Positions 2,994 to 15,642 of a stretch of DNA of 64,000 nt are shown piece after piece. The stretch's first letter is position 1. Every line of letters begins with the position of its first letter. The stretch lies in assembly GCF_007997305.1 (NCBI RefSeq), contig NZ_VORZ01000001.1, positions 620,001 to 684,000 of the forward strand, read 5' to 3'. Under the pieces are notes generated by a model. It saw only the letters and a list, made by a program, of their open reading frames with translations, was not told the DNA's origin and ran no database searches. The stretch comes from Psychrobacter frigidicola (GTDB lineage Bacteria; Pseudomonadota; Gammaproteobacteria; Pseudomonadales; Moraxellaceae). Position numbers and translations under genes: made by a program.

Positions 2994-4780
2994 ATGCCGA
3001 GCCTAATAGAAAAGCAGACGACAAAGAATCTAAGAGAACTGCGAGTGAAGAAACCGATAGCGTACCAATAGCGCATTACAAGGTCGATAACTTTACAAGG
3101 CTTGTAAAATTGAGCCCGCGATTTTTACTGCTGCTACTTATATTGCCGGTACTCGGCGGTTTAATCAGTGTGCTATTACCGGCCTTTGGTTGGGCGCCAG
3201 CACTTGAACAAACAACATTTGGTCTGCAAGGTTTTAGGGCGCTTTGGCAAACGCCGGGGCTTGCGCAGATGATTGATTTAAGCATAGCAGCTGGCTTACT
3301 AAGTACCCTGCTCGCCTTTGTTATCACACTCATGATGCTGGCTACTTTTTTCAATAGTTTTTGGCTCAATCGTATTGAGCGTCTACTTAGTCCTATTTTA
3401 GTCATTCCACATGCAGCAGCTGCGATTGCCGTTGGCTTTTTAATTGCGCCATCTGGTATGTTCTCTCGGCTAATCTCACCGTGGTTAACTGGCTGGGAGC
3501 TGGCACCGCACGGTATATTCCCGCACGATGCCTATGGTATCAGTATTATTTTGGGCTTAACGCTAAAAGAGCTGCCCTTCTTATTGCTCATGGCGCTCGG
3601 CGCATTGGCGCAACCTGAATTTGGCAAAAAGTTACGCCAGCACTATAAAGTAGCGCTTACTTTAGGCTATTACCCGATGACTGCTTTCTTCAAAGTGGTA
3701 CTGCCTAATCTCTATCCGTTATTACGCTTGCCTATATTTGCGGTCCTTGCCTATGCTAGTGCCAGTGTCGAGATGCCATTGATATTAGGGCCGAACACCC
3801 CGCCAACACTAGCGGTCACCATCATGCAGTGGTTCAATGATGTTGATTTAAATCTACGTATCAAAGCCTCTGCCGGTGCAGTGTTGCAACTGGCTCTAAC
3901 GGGTGGCTTATTGGCTTTGTGGTTCACAGGCGAAAAAGTTATCAAAGCCTTATTTAGTGGCTCACTTACCAATGGTCGGCGTAAATATAATGACCCTATG
4001 TGGCAAAAAACCACCTTTGTGCTTACCATTCTGGTCATAGGGTTTTTATTACTCGCGCTGATTGGGCTGGTGATGTGGTCAGTTGCCGGATTTTGGCGCT
4101 TTCCAGCAGCGCTGCCAGAGCAGTTTGTGCTAACACATTTCCAAAGCGCCTTGATGCAAATAGGCAGCCCGCTATTTAATACCCTTACGATCGGTTTGAT
4201 AACCACCTTTTTTGCGGTGGTACTTACTCTACTCTGTTTAGAGTCTGAGCAGCTGACTGCCAAAGCCCTCTCCTCTTTTACCAGTTTAATCATTTATTTA
4301 CCATTACTAGTACCCAGCATTGCCTTTTTATTTGGCTTAGTATGGTTACAGCAGTTGGTCAATAACCAAACTGCATTTCTTAACGTGGCCTTTACCCATT
4401 TATTGTTTGTATTACCTTATGTATTTTTATCGCTGGCGAGCAGTTATCGGCGTTTAGATTCTCGCTTTGCCAATGTAGCAGCAAGCCTTGGGGCGACTCC
4501 TAGTAAAGTATTTTTTCAGGTTAAGTTACCGCAGTTATTTGCTCCTATTTTAATTGCGGTCGCATTAGGCTTGGCCATCAGTTTTGGGCAATATCTGCCG
4601 ACCTTGATAACAGGTGGCGGGCGCATAGCGACGATAACCACTGAAGCAGTTACCCTTGCCAATGGCGCAAGTAGGCGTACCAGTGCCGTTTATGCCATCA
4701 TACAAATGGCGCTACCGTTAATTGGTTTTACGCTAGCGTGGATACTACCTAAGTATTTCTTTAAGAGTGCGAAGCGTTAA
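2990..4780 (+). CDS. ynjC: ABC transporter permease, YnjC-like (two fused permease units)
   Basis: This 596-residue integral membrane protein has two homologous BPD_transp_1-type halves with about a dozen hydrophobic helices. Each half has an EAA-type cytoplasmic loop (for example KVALTLGYYPMTAFFKVVLPN in the first and ASLGATPSKVFFQVKLPQL in the second). This double-length design is shared with ThiP and FbpB and lets a single gene supply the whole channel. The first ~45 residues are a charged cytoplasmic leader. Its start overlaps the substrate-binding gene by 4 bases, and the ATPase gene follows 77 bases after the stop if the ATG at 4858 is used. Substrate unknown; assignment rests on family resemblance and operon order. 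Confidence 0.85.
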   Translation: MNAEPNRKADDKESKRTASEETDSVPIAHYKVDNFTRLVKLSPRFLLLLLILPVLGGLISVLLPAFGWAPALEQTTFGLQGFRALWQTPGLAQMIDLSIAAGLLSTLLAFVITLMMLATFFNSFWLNRIERLLSPILVIPHAAAAIAVGFLIAPSGMFSRLISPWLTGWELAPHGIFPHDAYGISIILGLTLKELPFLLLMALGALAQPEFGKKLRQHYKVALTLGYYPMTAFFKVVLPNLYPLLRLPIFAVLAYASASVEMPLILGPNTPPTLAVTIMQWFNDVDLNLRIKASAGAVLQLALTGGLLALWFTGEKVIKALFSGSLTNGRRKYNDPMWQKTTFVLTILVIGFLLLALIGLVMWSVAGFWRFPAALPEQFVLTHFQSALMQIGSPLFNTLTIGLITTFFAVVLTLLCLESEQLTAKALSSFTSLIIYLPLLVPSIAFLFGLVWLQQLVNNQTAFLNVAFTHLLFVLPYVFLSLASSYRRLDSRFANVAASLGATPSKVFFQVKLPQLFAPILIAVALGLAISFGQYLPTLITGGGRIATITTEAVTLANGASRRTSAVYAIIQMALPLIGFTLAWILPKYFFKSAKR

Positions 4781-4857
4781 AAGTACAAATGACGACTCGA
4801 AGATATACTATTCTCAAAGCTCATATTTTAAACATAAGTCACATTACAGGACTCTTG

Positions 4858-5514
4858 ATGCAATCCTCTTTACAGATAAAAAACTTACAGCTTTATCGTC
4901 AAGACCAACTACTGCTTAGCTTAAATGAGCAAGTTAATGGCGGCGACATACTCACTATCATGGGACCTTCGGGCAGTGGTAAATCAAGTCTACTGAACTG
5001 GCTAACGGGCACACTTGCCAGCAGTTTTAGCGCTACTGGTGAAGTCTGGCTTAACGGTCAAAACATCAGTAACCTACCGACACATTTACGACATATCGGA
5101 GTGCTGTATCAAGATGCATTATTGTTCTCGCACTTATCAGTTGCCGGCAATATTGCCTTTGCAATGCCTAAAGCTAATAAAGAAAGCAGTAAAAAAGGCA
5201 GTAAAAAACAAAGGCTGGAAAAAATAGAGGATGCACTTGCGCAAGTGGGCTTAGCGGGTATGGGTAACCGCCATCCTGATAGTCTATCTGGTGGACAGCA
5301 AGCCAGAGTGGCGTTACTACGACTACTTCTTAGCGAGCCGAAAGCCATTTTACTCGATGAGCCGTTTAGTAAACTGGACACCCAGCTGCGAGTAGATACA
5401 CGTCAATTGGTATTTGATCAAATTCGTAACCGTAACTTGCCTGCTATTATGGTCACCCACGACCATAGCGATGCTGAGGCGACTAGTGGCAAAGTGATTC
5501 ATTTAGCACCCTAG
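4858..5514 (+). CDS. ynjD: ABC transporter ATP-binding protein, YnjD-like
   Basis: An ABC ATPase of 218 residues from the ATG at 4858, which has an ACAGGA ribosome site upstream and puts the usual first beta strand (LQIKNLQLYR) at the N-terminus. An upstream in-frame ATG at 4789 would add 23 residues without family support. Walker A is MGPSGSGKSSL, the signature is LSGGQQAR, Walker B is AILLDEP, and the switch His is in MVTHDHSDA. A Lys/Ser-rich stretch (KANKESSKKGSKKQR) sits before the signature helix. It should energise the 2990-4780 permease at the inner membrane. Confidence 0.87.
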   Translation: MQSSLQIKNLQLYRQDQLLLSLNEQVNGGDILTIMGPSGSGKSSLLNWLTGTLASSFSATGEVWLNGQNISNLPTHLRHIGVLYQDALLFSHLSVAGNIAFAMPKANKESSKKGSKKQRLEKIEDALAQVGLAGMGNRHPDSLSGGQQARVALLRLLLSEPKAILLDEPFSKLDTQLRVDTRQLVFDQIRNRNLPAIMVTHDHSDAEATSGKVIHLAP

Positions 5515-5551
5515 TTTTAGAGTCAGTAGTTAAACCTAAAAGGCAACCAGC

Positions 5552-6193
5552 ATGCTAGATAAGTACCTAACTCCCGTGATAAAACCCATGTTAACGCCAG
5601 TAGTGATACTGCTGCATAAGCGTTCTATAACGGCTGATCAGCTGACGGTGGTAGGGTTTTTAATTGGGCTGTTAGCCGTACCGCTAATCGCCTTTGAGTA
5701 TTGGTATACGGCATTGGTTGCTATCATTTTGAACCGAGTTTTAGATGGGCTTGACGGCGCGCTGGCAAGATATGCCAAGCAAAGCTCAAGCGCTGGGGGT
5801 TACTTAGACATTACTCTCGACTTCTTATTTTATGCTGCTATTCCGTTTGGATTTATTCTGGCCAATCCTGAGCAAAACGCTATCGCTGGCGCATTATTAT
5901 TAGCAACATTTATTGGGACTGGCTCAAGCTTTTTAGCCTTTGCTATTGCAGCTGAAAAGTTTAAAATTGATAGACCACAGTTTAAATATAAAAGCTTTTA
6001 TTATTTAAATGGTCTCACCGAAGGTACGGAAACTATTGCGCTATTTATCGCTTTTTGTATTTGGCCACAGCATTTTGCCATATTCGCGACCCTCTTTGCC
6101 ATTGCCTGTACGATTACTATTTTTACCCGCATATATGGTGGCTACCATACCCTCAAACAGCAAGAAGCTAAAATAAAAGGAGCAAACCGATGA
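5552..6193 (+). CDS. ynjF: CDP-alcohol phosphatidyltransferase family protein, YnjF-like
   Basis: A 213-residue membrane enzyme with the full CDP-alcohol phosphotransferase signature, DGLDGALAR followed by G(3)D(3)D (GGYLDITLD), at about residues 66-92. These residues bind the metal and the CDP-linked donor, which transfers a phosphatidyl or phosphoalcohol group at the membrane. Roughly five to six hydrophobic helices surround it. It follows the YnjBCD transporter genes as ynjF does in E. coli, although ynjE (sulfurtransferase) is missing here. It overlaps the next gene by 4 bases (ATGA). The acceptor alcohol is unknown; the operon suggests it may be linked to what the importer brings in. Confidence 0.85.
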   Translation: MLDKYLTPVIKPMLTPVVILLHKRSITADQLTVVGFLIGLLAVPLIAFEYWYTALVAIILNRVLDGLDGALARYAKQSSSAGGYLDITLDFLFYAAIPFGFILANPEQNAIAGALLLATFIGTGSSFLAFAIAAEKFKIDRPQFKYKSFYYLNGLTEGTETIALFIAFCIWPQHFAIFATLFAIACTITIFTRIYGGYHTLKQQEAKIKGANR

Positions 6194-6981
6194 CACATGA
6201 AGTATGGTGGCGACTTGGCTTCTTTATGAGCATTTTAGTGATAATGATGCTCATTGAATGGCGAAAACCCGCACGCAAGTCACCCATTAAAAGTGGCACA
6301 CGTTGGTTCGCAAATTTTGGCTTGGTATTCGCCTCATCGCTTATTGCGCGCTTAGCAGTACCGATTGGTCTGACTGCTGTGGCACTTTATACTCAGGAAA
6401 ACGGTATTGGCTTATTTAATCTAATAGAGCTGCCAAGTATTGTCGTCATTGTGCTGAGTTTGATTTTGCTTGATATTTTAATCTATTGGCAACATCGACT
6501 GTTTCATCGTGTTCCTATCTTATGGCGATTGCACCGTGTCCACCATGCTGACGCACATATCGATACCAGTACTGGTCTTAGGTTTCACCCGCTTGAAATC
6601 GTACTCAGTATTCTGATCAAGCTGATTGCCGTCATTGTCTTGGGCGTGCCTGCGATAGCAGTACTCATATTTGAGATCGTGCTAAATGGTTTAGCATTGT
6701 TTAATCATGCCAATATTCGCCTGCCACCAGCCATTGAAAAACCAGCACGTCTTATATTAATGACCCAAATCTTGCACCGTATTCACCATAGCCAAGTGGT
6801 TTCTGAGACCAATTCAAACTATGGCTTTAGCGTTATTTGGTGGGATAAGTTGTTCGGTAGCTATAAAAGTGTCGCAAAAAAAACCGATGATCAACTTGAT
6901 ATCGGTTTGATTGAATACCCTACTGCCAAACAAAATGCTTCATTATGGCGCTTATTAATCATGCCATTTCAGAATAAATGA
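6190..6981 (+). CDS. Fatty acid hydroxylase superfamily (sterol desaturase-like) protein
   Basis: This 263-residue membrane protein carries the three His clusters of the di-iron hydroxylase/desaturase superfamily: HRLFH (about residue 102), HRVHH (about 117) and HRIHH (about 197), plus an RFHP motif. Known members insert oxygen into, or desaturate, lipid acyl or sterol chains at the membrane. Four hydrophobic spans are visible. It is coupled to the phosphatidyltransferase gene by an ATGA overlap and ends the operon that starts with the ABC importer, so a shared lipid-modification role is a reasonable inference. The real substrate cannot be read from sequence. Confidence 0.82.
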   Translation: MTHEVWWRLGFFMSILVIMMLIEWRKPARKSPIKSGTRWFANFGLVFASSLIARLAVPIGLTAVALYTQENGIGLFNLIELPSIVVIVLSLILLDILIYWQHRLFHRVPILWRLHRVHHADAHIDTSTGLRFHPLEIVLSILIKLIAVIVLGVPAIAVLIFEIVLNGLALFNHANIRLPPAIEKPARLILMTQILHRIHHSQVVSETNSNYGFSVIWWDKLFGSYKSVAKKTDDQLDIGLIEYPTAKQNASLWRLLIMPFQNK

Positions 6982-7832: not shown

Positions 7833-9080
7833 ATGATTGACTTGATGATCAGAAATGCACGCTTAACCAACCATGAAGACTTGGTTAATATTAGTATAAA
7901 GGATACTTGTATTACAGGCATTGATAAAGCTGCTGATGTTGATGATAGTAGTAATGACGGGCTTTATGGCGGCACTGTTTATGATGCACAAGGCAACTTT
8001 GTCTGTGCTGGTTTTTACGAGAGTCATATCCATCTTGATAAAGCCTGCATACTAGACCGCTGTAGCTTAGAGGAAGGCGACTTAGAGGAAGCAGTTGAAG
8101 AAACGGGCAAGGCCAAAGAAGAGTTTACTGAAGAAGATGTGTTTGAGCGCGCATCAAAAGTCATAGAAATGGCTATTAAGAAAGGCACCGTAGGATTACG
8201 TACGTTTGTAGAAACTGACTCTAAAACTGAACTGCGTAGCTTTGAGGCTATAAAAAGAGCGCGAAAAAAGTATGCATTTGCGATTGATATAGAGATTTGT
8301 GCCTTTGCTCAAGACGGTCTGACTACTGAGCCAAGAACGTATGAGCTGCTGCAACAAGCATTATCACAAGGCGCGGATCTGGTAGGCGGTTGCCCGTACA
8401 AAGACGACCATCCAAATCAACATATTGAAATGATATTTGACTTAGCCGAACAGTTTAACGTCAATGTTGATTTTCATCTGGATTTTGATTTAGACCCTAC
8501 TGGCTCAACCATTCCAAGATTGGTAGAAGAGACCATCAAACGTAACTATCGAGGTCGTGTCTCTATCGGTCATGTCACCAAACTATCTGCTATGGACAAA
8601 ATGCAGCGAGGAGCAATGGCAGGATTACTAAAGTTTGCAGATATCACATTAACCGTATTGCCAGCAACTGACATCTACTTAAATGGCCGTGACTATGACG
8701 CTTTAATACCTAGAGGCATGGTCAACGCCAATGAATTAGCGGAACTGGGCATTAATACCACCATTGCTAGCAATAATATTTTGAATGCATTTACGCCTTA
8801 CGGTGATGCCTCACTCATGAGAATGGCGAATATGTATGCTAATATTGTACAACTATCGAAAGATACTGAAATAGCAGATGTGTTCGATATGGTCGGTAAA
8901 AATGCAGCGAAGTTATTTTCACATCAAGCTGAGATAGCAGTAGGTGCACAGGCTACTTTGGTTGTGCTAGAAGCAAAGGATGCTGTAACAGCGATTAGAA
9001 CCACTGCACAAGCTTTAGCAGGCTTCAAAAATGGCAGACAAACATTCTGCAATCATGCGGCGCATATTTGCTTTGAGTAA
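7833..9080 (+). CDS. Amidohydrolase family protein (cytosine deaminase/AtzC-like)
   Basis: A 415-residue metal-dependent hydrolase of the amidohydrolase superfamily. The first metal motif is SHIHLDKACIL (about residue 66); further ligands are in DFHLDFDLD, GHVTKLSAM and the C-terminal Asp region ASNNILNAF. The HxHLDK form is typical of cytosine deaminase and N-isopropylammelide amidohydrolase (AtzC) relatives, which hydrolyse amino or alkylamino groups on heterocycles. It is a single-gene unit with its own terminator at 9211-9238. The exact substrate is not determined. Confidence 0.8.
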   Translation: MIDLMIRNARLTNHEDLVNISIKDTCITGIDKAADVDDSSNDGLYGGTVYDAQGNFVCAGFYESHIHLDKACILDRCSLEEGDLEEAVEETGKAKEEFTEEDVFERASKVIEMAIKKGTVGLRTFVETDSKTELRSFEAIKRARKKYAFAIDIEICAFAQDGLTTEPRTYELLQQALSQGADLVGGCPYKDDHPNQHIEMIFDLAEQFNVNVDFHLDFDLDPTGSTIPRLVEETIKRNYRGRVSIGHVTKLSAMDKMQRGAMAGLLKFADITLTVLPATDIYLNGRDYDALIPRGMVNANELAELGINTTIASNNILNAFTPYGDASLMRMANMYANIVQLSKDTEIADVFDMVGKNAAKLFSHQAEIAVGAQATLVVLEAKDAVTAIRTTAQALAGFKNGRQTFCNHAAHICFE

Positions 9081-9454
9081 GCCTGATTGGAATATGAAAT
9101 ACTTCAAATTATGGCTTATAATAAGCATGAAAATAATCAATGGCTGAACATCGTAAATAATATGATAAAATTAGTATAGATAGCCTTATTATGTCTCACC
9201 GTTTTGAAATGCTCTAGTTTAATAACTAGAGCTTTTTTGTAGGCTTCTCAAAGTCTTATAAACTGCATAACAGGAATTGATCACTAAAAATTATAGAATT
9301 AAGTAGTATTATCTCTCAGATTGAATCTAAAATATTTTAAAAACTATTGTAAGTGACGACAGACAAACTAGATGTTAATTTTTCTATCGTATTTAAGATT
9401 TCTGCATTAAACTTGATATTTTATAAACTTATCTAACAGCGAGTATGACATTAA
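9081..9454. other. Intergenic region, 374 bases
   Basis: It contains the terminator at 9211-9238 and, to its right, the AT-rich promoter region of the TerC-family gene. No other open frame or structure is supported. Confidence 0.5.
9211..9238 (+). terminator. Intrinsic terminator of the amidohydrolase gene
   Basis: A perfect 9-bp stem (9211-9219 with 9224-9232) with a 4-base loop is followed by six T. It lies 131 bases after the amidohydrolase stop. Confidence 0.85.
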
Positions 9455-11014
9455 ATGATAGCGTTTTTAAGCGATCCAGCGATTTGGCTTGGCTTTTTTA
9501 CCTTGGTTAGTCTTGAGATTATTTTAGGTATTGATAATCTAGTATTTATTGCCATTCTTGCTAATAAGCTGCCGCCACATCAGCGTAATAAAGCTCGGAA
9601 TATCGGTCTGTCTCTCGCACTAGTGATGCGCTTAGGATTGCTATTTGTGATGTCATGGTTAGTAACACTGACCGATCCTGTAGTAACTTATGCTGGTTTT
9701 GCCTTATCTGTTAGAGATTTAATTTTAGTGGTTGGTGGCGTATTTTTACTATTTAAAGCCACGCTTGAGCTGCATGAAAGGTTGGAGGGCAAACCTGAAT
9801 CTAGCAATCAAAGCAGAGTTTATGCTGGCTTTACGGCCGTTGTTGTCCAAATTGTGGTCTTGGATGCGGTATTCTCCTTTGATGCAGTAATCACAGCAGT
9901 TGGGATGGTAGAACAGCTTGGCGTTATGATGGCTGCAGTCATTGTAGCAATGGCAGTGATGATTCTTGCCTCTAAAGCTTTAACGGACTTTGTCGGTAGG
10001 CATCCTACGGTAGTGATTTTATGCTTAAGCTTTTTGTTGATGATTGGCTTTAGTTTAATCGTTGAAGGCTTAGGTTTTCATATTCCTAAAGGATATTTAT
10101 ACGCAGCAATTGGCTTCTCTATTCTTATCGAAGCATTCAATCAGTTTTTACAACGAAACCGTACTAAGTATGAAGATCAAATTCCACTACGAGATCGAGC
10201 TGCTGATAATATCTTAAGATTAATGGGTGGAAAAAACCAAGAAAGCAATCACGAAGAAATGCTGGTAGAAGACAATATGCTTGCATCAACGCTACCTTTT
10301 GCGCAAGAAGAACGCTATATGATTAGCGGGGTACTGGCGTTAAGTGAGCGAGAGGTACAAACCATTATGACTCCGCGCTCGGAGGTATCTTGGGTAGATA
10401 TTACTGGCAGTTTAGAGTCGATTCGTCATCAAGTATTGGCAACGCCACATAGCTTACTGCCGGTTTGTGAAGGGAAACTAGATAAGGTATTGGGTGTGGT
10501 GCGTGCTAAAGATATTTTAGCGGCAGTAGATAGTAATCCAAGTGATATTCATGCGGCTTTAAAGCCTTTATTAACCAAGCAACAGCCAGTTTTTGTATCA
10601 GACACTATCGACAATTTGCGTCTCATTAACTTACTAAAGAATGCTAAAGGTAACTTAGCGGTAGTGATAGATGAGTACGGTCAATTAACAGGTTTGGTCA
10701 CGCCGTTAGACCTATTTGAGGCCATTGCGGGTGAGTTCCCCGATGAGGATGAAACCTTGGAGATTATCAAACACGAAGATCATTGGATCGCTGAAGGTAC
10801 CGTTAGCTTAAATCAATTACGTCTTGAATTACAGGAGTCTGATCTTTTGTGTGAAGTTGAGCAGCTGACTATCGGAGGCTATATAAACTCGCAATTAGAA
10901 GGTGCCGCTCAAGTTAATGACCACATTAATATTGATGGTCACATTTTTACCGTTTTAGAGACCTTATCATCGAGAATTTTATTATTAAAAATAGAAAAGA
11001 GAACTGGCTTGTAG
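9455..11014 (+). CDS. TerC family membrane protein with CBS pair and CorC/HlyC domain (YoaE/YegH type)
   Basis: A 519-residue protein in three parts. Residues ~1-230 form about seven hydrophobic helices of the TerC fold with the acidic membrane motifs [11 protein letters not shown] and DAVFSFDAV. Residues ~295-420 form a CBS pair, with [10 protein letters not shown] at its start. Residues ~430-519 form a CorC_HlyC transporter-associated domain. TerC relatives are linked to metal (Mn/Ca) export or loading of exported metalloenzymes. The length and order match E. coli YoaE and YegH. The stop codon lies within an 8-bp inverted repeat (10998-11005/11020-11027) and is followed at once by a 20-bp tandem duplication. 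Confidence 0.88.
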
Positions 11015-11026
11015 CAGCAAGTTCTC

Positions 11027-11066
11027 TCTGAACTACTAGCACAGATTCTGAACTACTAGCACAGAT
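11027..11066. repeat. Perfect 20-bp tandem duplication after the TerC-family gene
   Basis: The unit TCTGAACTACTAGCACAGAT occurs at 11027-11046 and again, identical, at 11047-11066. It starts 13 bases after the stop codon. It has no coding role that I can see and looks like a recent slippage or duplication event. Confidence 0.95.
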
Positions 11067-11119
11067 AAAGTATTGTAAATAATGCTGTATCGAAAGTTTA
11101 AACACTAAGCCTATTATAA

Positions 11120-11392: not shown

Positions 11393-12218
11393 CTCGTTAT
11401 GTCCTTACAGTGATATGCGCCGTCATATAAAATCTCATTTTAAACAATTCATTTTACGTTATGTTGTCTAGAGACTAGCAGCCAGCAATCAGAACTTAAG
11501 TTTTAAAAGTAAATGTTTTAAAAGACAGCTTTAGCAAAAGTCTCTTTTAAACTTTTTGGTTCTTGGCGTTTAACGTTATTTAGCTTATGACGAGTCGCGG
11601 AAGCAACTTGATAAGCCTTTAAACGCGACTGTTGTAAATTACCAATCGGTCTATTTGCTTCTAAGCAGCGAAATGGGGTAAAAGAAAGTTTTTCCATGAT
11701 TTAAAAGTTGCCATCATCGAGGATATTTTGGCAAGGAATAGTTAAGCGTGCTACCGTCATAAATGGCGCATCTGATTCCATCTAGGGTTTAGTGCAAGTG
11801 TAAGAACCTTGGGCCGTAAAAAATAATAAGATGAGCTTGTTATACCATAGCCTCATTAACAACACTTCTCTGTAGTGACGATTTATTAACGATTGGCAAA
11901 CCAGCAGTGTCCTTTTTGGCATGGAGTCGAGAAAATGAAAGGGGTTGCAATGAGAGTTATAATGTAATGGAAATCTTAGACAGATTTATAAATAGGAATC
12001 GGGCGTACTATGAACAAAGGCTATAAGCCAAGCACCCCATCTATGACCAGCTCTGTTCAGCATTTCCTAGCAACACCGTTGATACCAACAGAAATAGTTT
12101 GGGAGAAGTTCCTCATTTAGATAACGCTTGGAATGTTAATGGTTAAGATAATCAAGATTAAGTCTCCTTTTATATATATAATCAAAGCACCATTAAAACG
12201 TAGAAAGTATAAAGCCCT
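11393..12218. other. Gene-poor region, 826 bases
   Basis: Apart from the interrupted minus-strand frame at 11518-11781, the only other short frame noted is a 36-codon plus-strand one at 12010-12120, without family or convincing ribosome site. The right end carries an AT-rich stretch (TATATATATA near 12170) just before the serpin gene that may be part of its promoter. Confidence 0.45.
11518..11781 (-). pseudogene. Small ORF pair interrupted by one in-frame stop (possible degraded gene)
   Basis: On the minus strand a 26-codon frame (ATG at 11781, stop TAA at 11703-11701) is followed, in the same frame after a single Ile codon, by ATG at 11697 and a 59-codon frame ending at 11518. Read through, it would give an 86-residue protein with a basic C-terminal half (QQSRLKAYQVASATRHKLNN). 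No family is recognised and neither start has a good ribosome site. It may be a gene with one nonsense mutation or chance open frames. Confidence 0.3.
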
Positions 12219-12273
12219 ATGAGCATCAATCATTCGTACTCTAGCCCTATGAGCATCAATCATTCGTACTCTA
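12214..12273 (+). repeat. Perfect 30-bp tandem duplication at the serpin start
   Basis: The 30 bases at 12214-12243 are repeated exactly at 12244-12273. The unit contains the start codon, so there are two ATGs (12219 and 12249) each opening the same peptide MSINHSYS. The duplication keeps frame and doubles the start region. Confidence 0.95.
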
Positions 12274-13639
12274 ACAGGAACATAGCGACCAAGCATATCG
12301 CTGTTGCTATTGCCCTCGGTGCTCTACTATCAATCCTTAGTGGTTGTAATAGCAGTCTTATCGACACTAAACCATCTCAAACAGCCTCTATTACTCCGTC
12401 AACTGCAGACGACGCGCTCGCTAAAAGCGAAGTTCAAAACAGCTCAGAGTTAAAACCTAATAACAATGATAACCACAGCCCTGCAGATGCGTTTGTATCG
12501 ACACCAGAGGGTATTGCTCAAGTCGTCACTGCCAATAACCAATTTGCCATTGATATGTATCAGCAGATAAATGGGCAGAGTAAGCAAGCAGAAAAAAACG
12601 TATTCTTCTCACCGTATAGCTTATCTACTGCTATGGCAATGCTGTATGCCGCCGCGGAAGGGGAAACTAAAGCACAAATACAGAGGACTTTTTACTATCC
12701 AGCACTGAACGTTCTAAATCCGAACAGTGCTGCATTACATGAACAGTTCAACAAACCAAATCCTAACTACCAACTGGCTACAGCCAACGATCTATGGATA
12801 CAACAAGGATTGCGCCCCAATCAAAACTACTTGGATACCGTACAACGTTATTACGGAGGTAAAGTCACCAACCTTGATTTTAAAAACAGCCCTGAACCTT
12901 CACGTCAGACCATTAATAAAACCATTGCCAAACATACTCAGCAGATGATTCCTGAAGTGCTGCCAGCAAGTAGTATCAATGCAGATACAGTCACTGTATT
13001 GACCAATGCAGTTTACTTTAAAGGGGATTGGAAAAATCCTTTTGCACCTAGTGAAAAACGCCCTTTAATAAATTTGATGGTTCTATCATCGATGTCGATA
13101 TGATGCATGAGCAAGCACCTTATGCCTATACAGAAGATGCGCAGGTTCAAGTTGTGCAGTTGCCTTACAAAGGTGATGAGCTGTCTATGTTAGTGGTATT
13201 ACCAAAAGTAAAAGATAAGATTGCTATGCATAGGTTAGTAGGTACGCTAAACGCCAAGCAGATTAGCCAGTGGAATAGTAATTTAGTCAATCAGGAGGTC
13301 ATACTCAATCTACCGAAATTTAGGCTAGAAGAAAACTACGCAATGGATAGCCTGTTAGCGAACATGGGTATGCCCAAAGCTTTTGGTAGCCAAGCGAACT
13401 TTGGTTTATTCAGTCAAGACCTAGCATTGTCTGTGGACGCTATCGCTCATAAAGCGGTGGTGGAAGTCGATGAAAAAGGTACTAAAGCGGCAGCAAGTAC
13501 AGGTATTACAATTGTGCCTATGTCACGGGGCTACTATGTGAATACCAGCACATTTACAGCCGATCATCCGTTTATTTTTATGATTAAAGACAATAAAACC
13601 GATGCAATATTGTTTTTGGGTCAGGTGAATAAACCGTAG
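12219..13639 (+). pseudogene. Serpin family lipoprotein, frameshifted
   Basis: Two frames (12219-13103 and 13100-13639) together make one serpin, a suicide inhibitor of serine proteases. The N-terminus has a lipoprotein signal, ALLSILSGC (Cys43 counted from the ATG at 12219), so it should be anchored in an envelope membrane. The first frame holds the serpin N-terminal motifs (NVFFSPYSLSTAMAML, LTNAVYFKGDWKNPF). The second holds DVDMMHEQ, VQLPYKGDELSMLVVLP, the hinge DEKGTKAAAST and DHPFIFMI. The break is at the A5 tract 13054-13058: with a sixth A the reading becomes ...PSEKTPFNKFDGSIIDVDMM without interruption. So a one-base deletion, a sequencing error or slippage separates the halves. Whether functional protein is made is uncertain. 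Confidence 0.85.
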
Positions 13640-13866: not shown

Positions 13867-15642
13867 TTACTCTTGATGTTTTAGTCCAATCGTTCTGAGT
13901 ACTCCTTTGCCATCAACTTCTTTAATAACCAATGACCACTCATCATTAATCGCCACGGTATCTCCTGAAACAGGCGCCGTTTCTAGACTTGAAATCACAT
14001 ATTCAGCGACGGTCTGTTGCCACATACTGGCTGACGGATCCTTAGTTTTAGACTTAAGCTTGGTGACCAGAGTTTCAGATTCCATAACGCCGGTAAAAAA
14101 TGGCAAATCACCCAACTTAACGCTTGGAGATAACAACCAATCACCATAAAAATCATCGATTGCTCGACGATCTAATTTTGTATCATTAAAAATTTGAGCG
14201 ATTTTACTGGCATGATTACCGCGCATGGCATACCAGACATTATCTCCAAATTTTAGCTGAGTGTCTTTATCAACAAGAATTAATTTCTGCCGACGCACTA
14301 ACGCAAATAGGCTAATCTCATCAGGACTGATACGAGTAGAGATGGCTTTTGGGTGTCGACCAGTCGCAAACGCTCCAGCCTTTACTTCAAACTCGTAGAG
14401 GGTAATACTTGCGTTATCTGATACCCAAACTTCATTCTCTTCTTTTGGTTCATCGTTAGCAGGAATACGCACTTTAAATAAAGTAGCCATGATAGGAATG
14501 GTGCTTCCTTGTAACACCAAGGACAACACCACCACTCCAAATGCAATATCAAATAGCATAAAGGCATCATCTACCAAGGCTATCACAGGCAAAATTGCAA
14601 GGGTAATCGGTACGGCCCCGCGCAGCCCTACCCACGAAATAAAACCAATTTCGCGATCTTTAAACTTAAATGGTTTGACGCTGGTATAAACGGCGATAGG
14701 ACGAGCAACCAAAATCATGAAGGCGGCAATCGCTACTGAATAGTACCAAACATTAATGACGTTAGACGGTGTGACAAGCAAGCCCAAAACGACGAAGAGT
14801 ACCGCTTGTGATAACCACGCAAAGCTGTCCATTACACGCAATACATGCTCAGTGGATCGCCCCTTACGGTTGCCAATGATAATGCCTGCTATATATACCG
14901 CTAAAAAACCACTACCGCCGATTAAGTTAGTAGCAGCAAATACTGACAGTCCCGCTGACAATATTAAAATGGCATACATGCCTTCTGCCAAATGTATCTT
15001 AGGTAATAATCTAGATAAGAAGTAGCCGGCAAGTAGACCCATTCCTAGGCCAAAGCTTAGTTGCTGTAACAATAAAATTAAGAAACCAAGTACGGTCTGC
15101 CCGGCAGGATTGACATTAAGTGCAATTAAGCCAGTCACTAACAGGATCGCTAAAGGGTCGTTGGCGCCAGATTCTAACTCAAGCGTGGCTTGGACGCGGT
15201 CGTTAAGCTTGACGCCACCGTTACGTAACAGAGAAAAAACCGCCGCCGCATCGGTAGAACCGACAATAGCTGCCATCAACAAGCCTACTCGCCAGTCTAC
15301 ATTCAACAGCCAAGTGACAAAGATACCTAATACCAAGACGGTACATAGTACACCCCAAGTCGCTAGTACGACCGCAGGCTTGAGACCAACTCGAAAAGAC
15401 TGGAAAGATGTGCGCAAACCACCGTCTAACAAAATACAGGCTAACGCGGCTTGCCCAATAAAATTTGCAATATTGTACTGTGAAAAGTGAATGCCCAAAA
15501 TACCATCTTCACCCGCTAACATCCCAACCACTAAAAACAGCAGCAATAAGGGTACGCCTAAACGCGCGGATAGAGTACTTGCCATGATACTAGCGAATAT
15601 TAATAATGCCCCTACTAAATATAGGATATTTAAGGTATCCAT
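13867..15642 (-). CDS. nhaP2: Potassium/proton antiporter, NhaP2/CvrA type
   Basis: A 591-residue CPA1 cation/proton antiporter. The first ~385 residues form about twelve membrane helices and include the motifs GEDGILGI, GSTDAAAVFSLL, ESGANDPLAILL and GLRGAVPI, which are hallmarks of NhaP-type exchangers. A soluble tail follows with a TrkA_C-like part (ITLYEFEVKAGAFATGRH, about 410-480) and a CorC_HlyC-like end (about 500-590). Length and domain order match E. coli CvrA (NhaP2), which exports K+ in exchange for H+ and helps volume and pH control. It is a single gene on the minus strand. Confidence 0.9.
   Translation of the reverse strand: MDTLNILYLVGALLIFASIMASTLSARLGVPLLLLFLVVGMLAGEDGILGIHFSQYNIANFIGQAALACILLDGGLRTSFQSFRVGLKPAVVLATWGVLCTVLVLGIFVTWLLNVDWRVGLLMAAIVGSTDAAAVFSLLRNGGVKLNDRVQATLELESGANDPLAILLVTGLIALNVNPAGQTVLGFLILLLQQLSFGLGMGLLAGYFLSRLLPKIHLAEGMYAILILSAGLSVFAATNLIGGSGFLAVYIAGIIIGNRKGRSTEHVLRVMDSFAWLSQAVLFVVLGLLVTPSNVINVWYYSVAIAAFMILVARPIAVYTSVKPFKFKDREIGFISWVGLRGAVPITLAILPVIALVDDAFMLFDIAFGVVVLSLVLQGSTIPIMATLFKVRIPANDEPKEENEVWVSDNASITLYEFEVKAGAFATGRHPKAISTRISPDEISLFALVRRQKLILVDKDTQLKFGDNVWYAMRGNHASKIAQIFNDTKLDRRAIDDFYGDWLLSPSVKLGDLPFFTGVMESETLVTKLKSKTKDPSASMWQQTVAEYVISSLETAPVSGDTVAINDEWSLVIKEVDGKGVLRTIGLKHQE

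What the first reader, a model, noticed from the sequence alone, without database searches (positions are those of the whole stretch)
13466..13560. Bacterial serpin with an alpha-1-antitrypsin-like reactive centre
Counting from the hinge Gly (P15) in DEKGTKAAAST, the predicted P2-P1-P1' residues are Pro-Met-Ser, with Ile-Val before them (IVPMS). Human alpha-1-antitrypsin has AIPMS at the same positions. The hinge has small residues, as in inhibitory serpins. This predicts inhibition of elastase-like proteases and, with the lipobox, a surface or periplasmic location.
Basis: partly seen in the sequence, partly recalled or inferred. Interest (0 to 1): 0.65.

Follow-up and report, generated by a model that had tools for sequence, protein, structure and literature searches.

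The report
Frameshifted Psychrobacter lipoprotein serpin, methionine P1
The spot is the bait loop of a bacterial protease-trapping inhibitor (a serpin) whose gene is broken by a frameshift; it is one of six related copies in this genome that share a scaffold but carry very different bait loops, so the likeness to human alpha-1-antitrypsin is three letters wide and probably coincidence.

Summary
Confirmed: 12219-13639 encodes a lipoprotein serpin split by a frameshift (Pfam Serpin 2e-51 and 8e-52). Counting from hinge Gly P15 (13478) puts P1 Met at 13520-13522; four of five displayed alignments to solved serpins agree without gaps. It recurs in two intact Psychrobacter serpins 61% identical over this half. 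Published siropins were cut at P3-P2 and P6-P5, so counting is no proof. Larger result: this genome holds five more intact serpins; 24 of 105 held genomes of the genus carry any. Between paralogues the loop is the most variable segment of the serpin domain, while hinge and C-terminal strands barely change. P1 is V/T/I/A/M in 33 of 37, never basic or aromatic. One serpin is a clear mosaic that carries another lineage's loop-bearing half. Best reading: membrane-anchored suicide inhibitors of elastase-like, probably foreign proteases, diversified partly by loop exchange; the window copy is a disrupted member. Inhibition is untested.

The parts
12213..12272 (+). perfect 30-bp tandem duplication that doubles the start codon and first ten codons
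   Evidence: the repeat finder (D1, 100%)
12219..13103 (+). N-terminal serpin half, 294 aa, ends at a premature stop in the original frame
   Evidence: Pfam Serpin 2e-51, profile 2-176
12219..12347 (+). signal peptide ending in lipobox L-S-G-C; Cys43 at 12345-12347, Asn at +2
   Evidence: translation; lipobox pattern also in intact relatives
13055..13103 (+). overlap of the two frames, where the frameshift lies; holds two X_XXY_YYZ heptamers (13061, 13070)
   Evidence: no significant downstream RNA fold
13055..13639 (+). C-terminal serpin half, open frame to the natural stop; carries the reactive centre loop
   Evidence: Pfam Serpin 8.3e-52, profile 192-370 of 370
13472..13501 (+). hinge P17-P8 (E-K-G-T-K-A-A-A-S-T)
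   Evidence: alignment with relatives
13502..13552 (+). variable reactive centre loop, P7 to P10'
   Evidence: most variable segment of the serpin domain in the family
13520..13525 (+). predicted scissile bond P1 Met - P1' Ser
   Evidence: counting from P15 (13478); alignments
13553..13636 (+). C-terminal strands (FTADHPF...LGQVNKP), near-identical among paralogues
   Evidence: 78-93% identity over 27 columns among the paralogues of this genome

Best explanation
The feature is the reactive centre loop of a lipid-anchored bacterial serpin, one of six serpin genes in this Psychrobacter genome. An intact member would present the loop as bait. A target serine protease cleaves the P1-P1' bond, the hinge inserts into sheet A, and the acyl-enzyme is dragged and distorted (suicide inhibition). 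Across the family the scaffold is nearly constant and the loop differs, so each paralogue should trap a different protease, mostly elastase-like (small aliphatic or beta-branched P1). The likeliest targets are exogenous proteases met at the cell envelope. The window copy (P1 Met) has lost its reading frame recently, or by a sequencing error, and most likely makes no inhibitor. Shown: serpin homology, frame break, P1 by counting and alignment, paralogue set, loop hypervariability, one clear mosaic (in one assembly). Inferred: inhibition, protease class, exogenous target, location, recency of the break.
For: Two Pfam Serpin halves. P1 by counting and in four of five displayed PDB alignments. Window halves keep 48 of 49 and 40 of 41 residues invariant in 37 intact relatives; the one C-side miss is an alignment gap beside the shift site. 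Five intact paralogues in the same genome. Among these and the window C-half, hinge identity is 70-100%, C-terminal block 78-93%, loop P7-P4' 9-36%. The four most variable of 355 eleven-column windows in the domain lie in the loop. Body dN/dS (corrected) averages 0.06-0.15 per bin against pooled loop pN/pS (uncorrected) of 0.35-1.16. P1 is V16 T7 I5 E3 A3 M2 Q1 in 37 unique Psychrobacter-type serpins. The AlphaFold model of an intact PMS relative (pLDDT 87.5) has a strand from P15 to P2, and its best PDB match is a cleaved leucocyte elastase inhibitor. This genome has no Peptidase_S8, and 1 of 7 S8-bearing genomes also has a serpin, which speaks against a self-made subtilisin as target.
Against: No biochemical data. 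P1 of bacterial serpins is not always where counting puts it: siropins were cut at P3-P2 and P6-P5 (PMC5127057, passages). Loop variability could reflect relaxed constraint: pooled loop pN/pS exceeds 1 in one of five bins only, at 1.16. Over the whole protein the signal/tether region is more variable still; the P7-P4' window ranks 29 of 425 there and 7 of 355 within the domain. The frameshift may be an assembly error; no second strain of this species was available. Proteases other than S8 were not searched.
Confidence: 0.7

Rival explanations
1. Functional mimic of alpha-1-antitrypsin: the PMS reactive centre was selected to block neutrophil elastase of an animal host.
For: P2-P1-P1' Pro-Met-Ser; the same triplet in two intact Psychrobacter serpins, 61% identical over this half; other bacterial serpins inhibit neutrophil elastase (PMC5127057, PMC8233489, passages).
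Against: Only three residues match; Ser at P1' occurs in 23 of 37 and Pro at P2 in 6 of 37. The records of the two PMS relatives are titled P. urativorans ACAM534 and Psychrobacter sp. TAE2020 and name no animal source. The window copy is frameshifted.
Confidence: 0.12
2. The frame break is bridged by programmed -1 ribosomal frameshifting, so some full-length serpin is made.
For: Two in-frame X_XXY_YYZ heptamers (13061, 13070; a third, 12593, lies outside the overlap) sit where a -1 slip would give the downstream frame; a small hairpin starts 6 nt after the first; conserved residues are intact.
Against: Downstream folding is no better than shuffles (z -0.64, 52 of 200 as good; z -1.04 and -0.77, 33 and 37 of 200). 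Such heptamers arise automatically where the downstream frame has two homopolymeric codons in a row. No comparable shift was seen in relatives, although the 37 compared were chosen for being single open frames.
Confidence: 0.05
3. The serpins regulate an endogenous envelope protease (DegP/HtrA type), whose recalled P1 preference for V/I/T/A matches the family's P1 set.
For: P1 is V/T/I/A in 31 of 37; lipid anchors, 21 of 37 with Asp at +2, which by the E. coli rule (recalled) keeps a lipoprotein in the inner membrane facing the periplasm.
Against: Serpins occur in 24 of 105 genomes of the genus while DegP is near-universal (recalled, not searched); rapid loop turnover does not fit a conserved partner. 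The window copy has Asn at +2.
Confidence: 0.1
4. The frame break is a sequencing or assembly error and the gene is intact in the living strain.
For: One disruption only; 88 of 90 family-invariant residues kept; no other stop in either half.
Against: The assembly is listed as 99.96% complete in 8 contigs; a recent real mutation would look the same. Partial and stop-bearing serpin copies occur in other genomes, so real loss happens in this family.
Confidence: 0.3

Closest known systems
Siropins 1 and 2 of Eubacterium siraeum (PMC5127057, passages)
   Same: two bacterial serpins in one genome whose loops (48% identical) differ more than the proteins without signal (63%); inhibit neutrophil elastase and proteinase 3
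   Different: two copies instead of six; no lipid anchor or PMS loop mentioned in the passages read
Miropin of Tannerella forsythia (5ncu; role per PMC8233489)
   Same: bacterial inhibitory serpin; fold match to the model of an intact relative
   Different: uses several bonds in its loop (title of a cited paper); reported to inhibit plasmin
Chloropin (8gxv, PMC10090351)
   Same: best PDB sequence match of the window C-half (1.5e-35)
   Different: P1 Arg; prefers thrombin and KLK7 (passages)
Human alpha-1-antitrypsin
   Same: Pro-Met-Ser at P2-P1-P1' (as the finding states) and inhibitory-type hinge
   Different: secreted plasma protein with a shorter primed side (recalled); not among the 60 best of 206 PDB matches shown
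Conserpin (5cdx)
   Same: its EIVPRS loop lines up gapless with TIVPMS of the window
   Different: P1 Arg; a synthetic consensus protein (recalled)

Membership tests
Serpin superfamily (Pfam PF00079) | serpin domain by profile | tested here: met
   both halves over the cut-off, profile 2-176 and 192-370 of 370
Serpin superfamily (Pfam PF00079) | serpin fold | tested here: met
   AlphaFold model of an intact relative (L047), pLDDT 87.5; 415 PDB matches with E <= 0.001, the 50 listed being serpins as I read their titles. Not done on the window protein itself
Serpin superfamily (Pfam PF00079) | one continuous open frame | tested here: not met
   the window copy is split at 13055-13103
Inhibitory serpins | hinge consensus P17-P9 ExGTEAAAA (as given in PMC8233489) | tested here: met
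   EKGTKAAAS: departs at P13 (Lys) and P9 (Ser), small residues kept from P12 to P8
Inhibitory serpins | covalent, SDS-stable complex with a protease | not testable with these tools
   needs purified protein
Alpha-1-antitrypsin-like elastase inhibitors | P1 Met | tested here: met
   by counting, by family alignment and in four of five PDB alignments shown
Alpha-1-antitrypsin-like elastase inhibitors | special kinship to the animal protein or its loop | tested here: inconclusive
   not among the 60 best of 206 PDB matches shown; the triplet is shared with two Psychrobacter relatives; no direct alignment was made
Alpha-1-antitrypsin-like elastase inhibitors | inhibition of elastase | not testable with these tools
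   needs an assay
Bacterial lipoproteins | signal peptide with lipobox and Cys | tested here: met
   sequence, Cys43; a lipobox pattern is found near the N-terminus in 37 of 37 intact relatives

The most novel reading that the evidence does not exclude
Psychrobacter keeps a multigene arsenal of membrane-anchored serpins in which recombination swaps the C-terminal half carrying the reactive centre loop between scaffolds and species, a bacterial counterpart of the hypervariable serpin loops of animals, driven by a changing set of foreign elastase-like proteases. The window gene is a disrupted member with a Met P1.
Probability: 0.35. Interest if true: 0.62.

Novelty: new member of a known kind. 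Interest (0 to 1): 0.38.

Why it matters
What bacterial serpins are for is open; a phylogenetic study of the superfamily calls their role in many prokaryotes enigmatic (PMC8233489, section read). A genus with up to six paralogues on one scaffold that differ most in the bait loop is a natural panel: specificity can be read by testing paralogues side by side, and the mosaic shows one way loops can move. The window copy alone matters little because it is broken.

Tried and rejected
Direct orthologue of the window gene: none found. In 105 held genomes of the genus the highest identity to the C-half outside this genome is 63%, and the two best-scoring matches are 61%. Beside the antiporter (window 13867-15642) no serpin was found in 7 of 7 relatives whose stretch I fetched, out of 104 genomes with an antiporter match; only the antiporter side aligned.

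Window gene as a recombinant of two lineages: the N-half groups weakly with one clade (bootstrap 49) and the C-half with the two PMS serpins (38). AU tests reject none of the three groupings tried (p 0.49, 0.12, 0.63). Left open.

Programmed frameshift: examined, weak.

Own subtilisin-type protease as target: none in this genome; 7 of 105 genomes have Peptidase_S8 and one of them (G025) has a serpin. Other protease families were not searched.

Literature: the listings of 'Psychrobacter + serpin' (12 of 12 shown) and 'Psychrobacter + serine protease inhibitor + bacterial' (10 of 10), and (18 of 18; 10 of 27; 10 of 22; 1 of 1; 10 of 12), show no title on Psychrobacter serpins or on loop exchange in bacterial serpins. 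PMC8233489 does not contain the words Psychrobacter, recombination or gene conversion. The library is open-access only, so this is no proof of absence from print.

Confidence in the best explanation went from 0.72 to 0.70 for the first of these.

Full report
Observation. The window piece 13055-13639 reads as the C-terminal half of a serpin and 12219-13103 as the N-terminal half, in different frames. Pfam Serpin matches both (2e-51 and 8.3e-52), at profile positions 2-176 and 192-370. The hinge D-E-K-G-T-K-A-A-A-S-T starts at 13469. With P15 Gly at 13478, P1 is Met at 13520-13522 and P1' is Ser at 13523-13525. Of five displayed PDB alignments, four run without gaps from hinge to P1, with Tyr (tick serpin-2) or Arg (9j91, conserpin and its variant) facing the Met. 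The best match, chloropin, carries one gap in the loop. A lipobox ends the signal peptide (Cys43), and a perfect 30-bp tandem duplication doubles the start.

State of the gene. The frames overlap at 13055-13103. The halves keep 48 of 49 and 40 of 41 residues invariant in 37 intact relatives; the one C-side miss is a gap beside the shift site. So the break is recent or an error (inference). Two slippery-type heptamers lie in the overlap, but downstream folding is ordinary (z -0.64, 52 of 200 shuffles as good; z -1.04 and -0.77). I do not favour programmed frameshifting.

Family. The genome holds five further intact serpins besides these two halves: three within 10 kb (C1:197-207 kb) and two elsewhere. 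The Pfam search found serpins in 22 of 100 genomes of the genus and in 25 of 299 of the bacterial family, in 2 of 16 genera. The C-half protein search found 22 of 105. The union over these calls is 24 of 105 in the genus, among them partial and broken copies. No genome in these three calls shows more serpin genes than this one. Records of the closest sequences are titled Psychrobacter, apart from one titled Acinetobacter (L051) and one titled Streptomyces (L064) (identities).

Loop. In 37 unique full-length Psychrobacter-type serpins P1 is V16 T7 I5 E3 A3 M2 Q1 and P1' is Ser in 23. None is basic or aromatic. Dropped before this count: four more divergent Psychrobacter serpins (L022, L023, L024, L043), partial genes, the window copy, and L064, which went with the others. 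Of 61 serpins from other loci of the genome scan, 57 could be counted by a hinge pattern, and 16 of these had Lys, Arg or Tyr at P1. The rows are related, so these are not independent trials. Among the paralogues of this genome, with the window C-half, the loop P7-P4' is 9-36% identical, the hinge 70-100%, the C-terminal block 78-93% and the body 54-81%. The four most variable of 355 eleven-column windows in the domain lie in the loop, and the P7-P4' window itself is seventh. Over the whole protein it is 29th of 425, behind windows of the signal and tether. Body dN/dS (corrected) averages 0.06-0.15 per bin; pooled loop pN/pS (uncorrected) is 0.38, 0.35, 0.71, 1.16 and 0.81 with rising body dS, over 467 of 666 pairs (199 saturated). 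This shows fast loop change relative to the body but does not prove positive selection.

Loop exchange. The serpin of P. pasteurii (L016, same as L052) is 97-100% identical in DNA to that of P. okhotskensis (L017, L058) over nine blocks of 30 codons, then 61-94%. Against the FME13/FME6 serpin (L012) it is 80-100% over the first nine blocks, 100% over the next six, and 89% in the last. By halves, the L016/L017 pair is 98.6% and 79.2%; L009 (P. piscatorii), L012 and L016 share 98-99% of the C-half but 85-89% of the N-half. Over all 666 pairs N minus C averages +8.1 points (sd 4.8), so +19.4 for L016/L017 and -13.6 for L009/L012 are the extremes. Trees place L016 with L017 in the N-half (bootstrap 100) and with L009 and L012 in the C-half (100). 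The N-half rejects L016 with L012 (p-AU 0.001); the reverse test on the C-half did not run. P1 differs accordingly: Thr in L017, Glu in L016 and L012. L016 comes from one assembly; the L009/L012 contrast is independent of it.

The PMS loop. Two intact serpins (L035 = P. urativorans ACAM534; L039 = Psychrobacter sp. TAE2020) carry IVPMSLGY. They are 93% identical to each other and 61% to the window C-half, and the genes beside them in the flanks fetched differ from those of the window. Trees do not settle whether the window gene is their sister. A partial gene (L025) has Met at P1 in a different loop (VDMS), so Met probably arose more than once. A model of L047 (same protein as L035) has pLDDT 87.5, a strand from P15 (Gly370) to P2 and a disordered stretch at 386-393. 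Its best PDB match is a cleaved leucocyte elastase inhibitor. The model thus appears to show the loop inserted, which fits a hinge able to insert (inference).

Function. Val, Thr, Ile, Ala and Met at P1 suit elastase-like enzymes (general knowledge; HNE and PR3 favour Val or Ala per PMC5127057, passage). In the window loop the only Val is followed by Pro, which disfavours the alternative cut seen in siropins, so Met-Ser is the best candidate bond (inference). Siropins show that counting can mislead. Lipid anchoring suggests protection of the envelope. Peptidase_S8 does not track serpins. Exogenous targets are thus more likely, but this is inference.

Papers. PMC8233489: passages and one section. 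PMC5127057 and PMC10090351: passages. PMC12282271: passages, not relevant. Others by listing only.

Verdict. The alpha-1-antitrypsin likeness is probably coincidence within a hypervariable loop. The copy is a disrupted member of a known kind. The family-level loop variation and exchange is the part worth following.

Noticed in passing
L036 (G000:C1:194500-210500) 4022-6391, 8009-9284, 10655-11104: A family of divergent 149-185 aa lipoproteins (anchor Cys, two further invariant Cys, one Gly) with no Pfam match over its cut-off lies between the serpins; seven were aligned. Found in 47 of 105 genomes of the genus, by my count in 17 of 24 serpin genomes and 30 of 81 others, uncorrected for kinship.
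   Followed up: partly
L016 / L052, serpin of P. pasteurii: Sharp mosaic: N-half as in one lineage, loop-bearing C-half as in another. One assembly only.
   Followed up: partly
L064 (record titled Streptomyces cinereus JCM 3040): A Psychrobacter-like serpin (44%); contig number, end position and frame length agree with G143:C33, a genome placed in the same bacterial family as the window, so the record name looks wrong.
   Followed up: no
L051 (record titled Acinetobacter sp. Ac_5812): Carries a Psychrobacter-type serpin with P1 Gln in an otherwise shared loop.
   Followed up: no
window 12213-12272: Perfect 30-bp tandem duplication over the serpin start codon.
   Followed up: no
G046:C60:6807-7085, G042:C2:264984-265247, G103:C1:146514-146783: Truncated or stop-bearing serpin pieces in other genomes, signs of gene loss in the family.
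   Followed up: no
L036, L038, L042 and L152, next to the VDIS-type serpin: A conserved protein of about 360 aa, 76-78% identical to the one in L036 and without a Pfam match over its cut-off, sits in each of these serpin islands.
   Followed up: no
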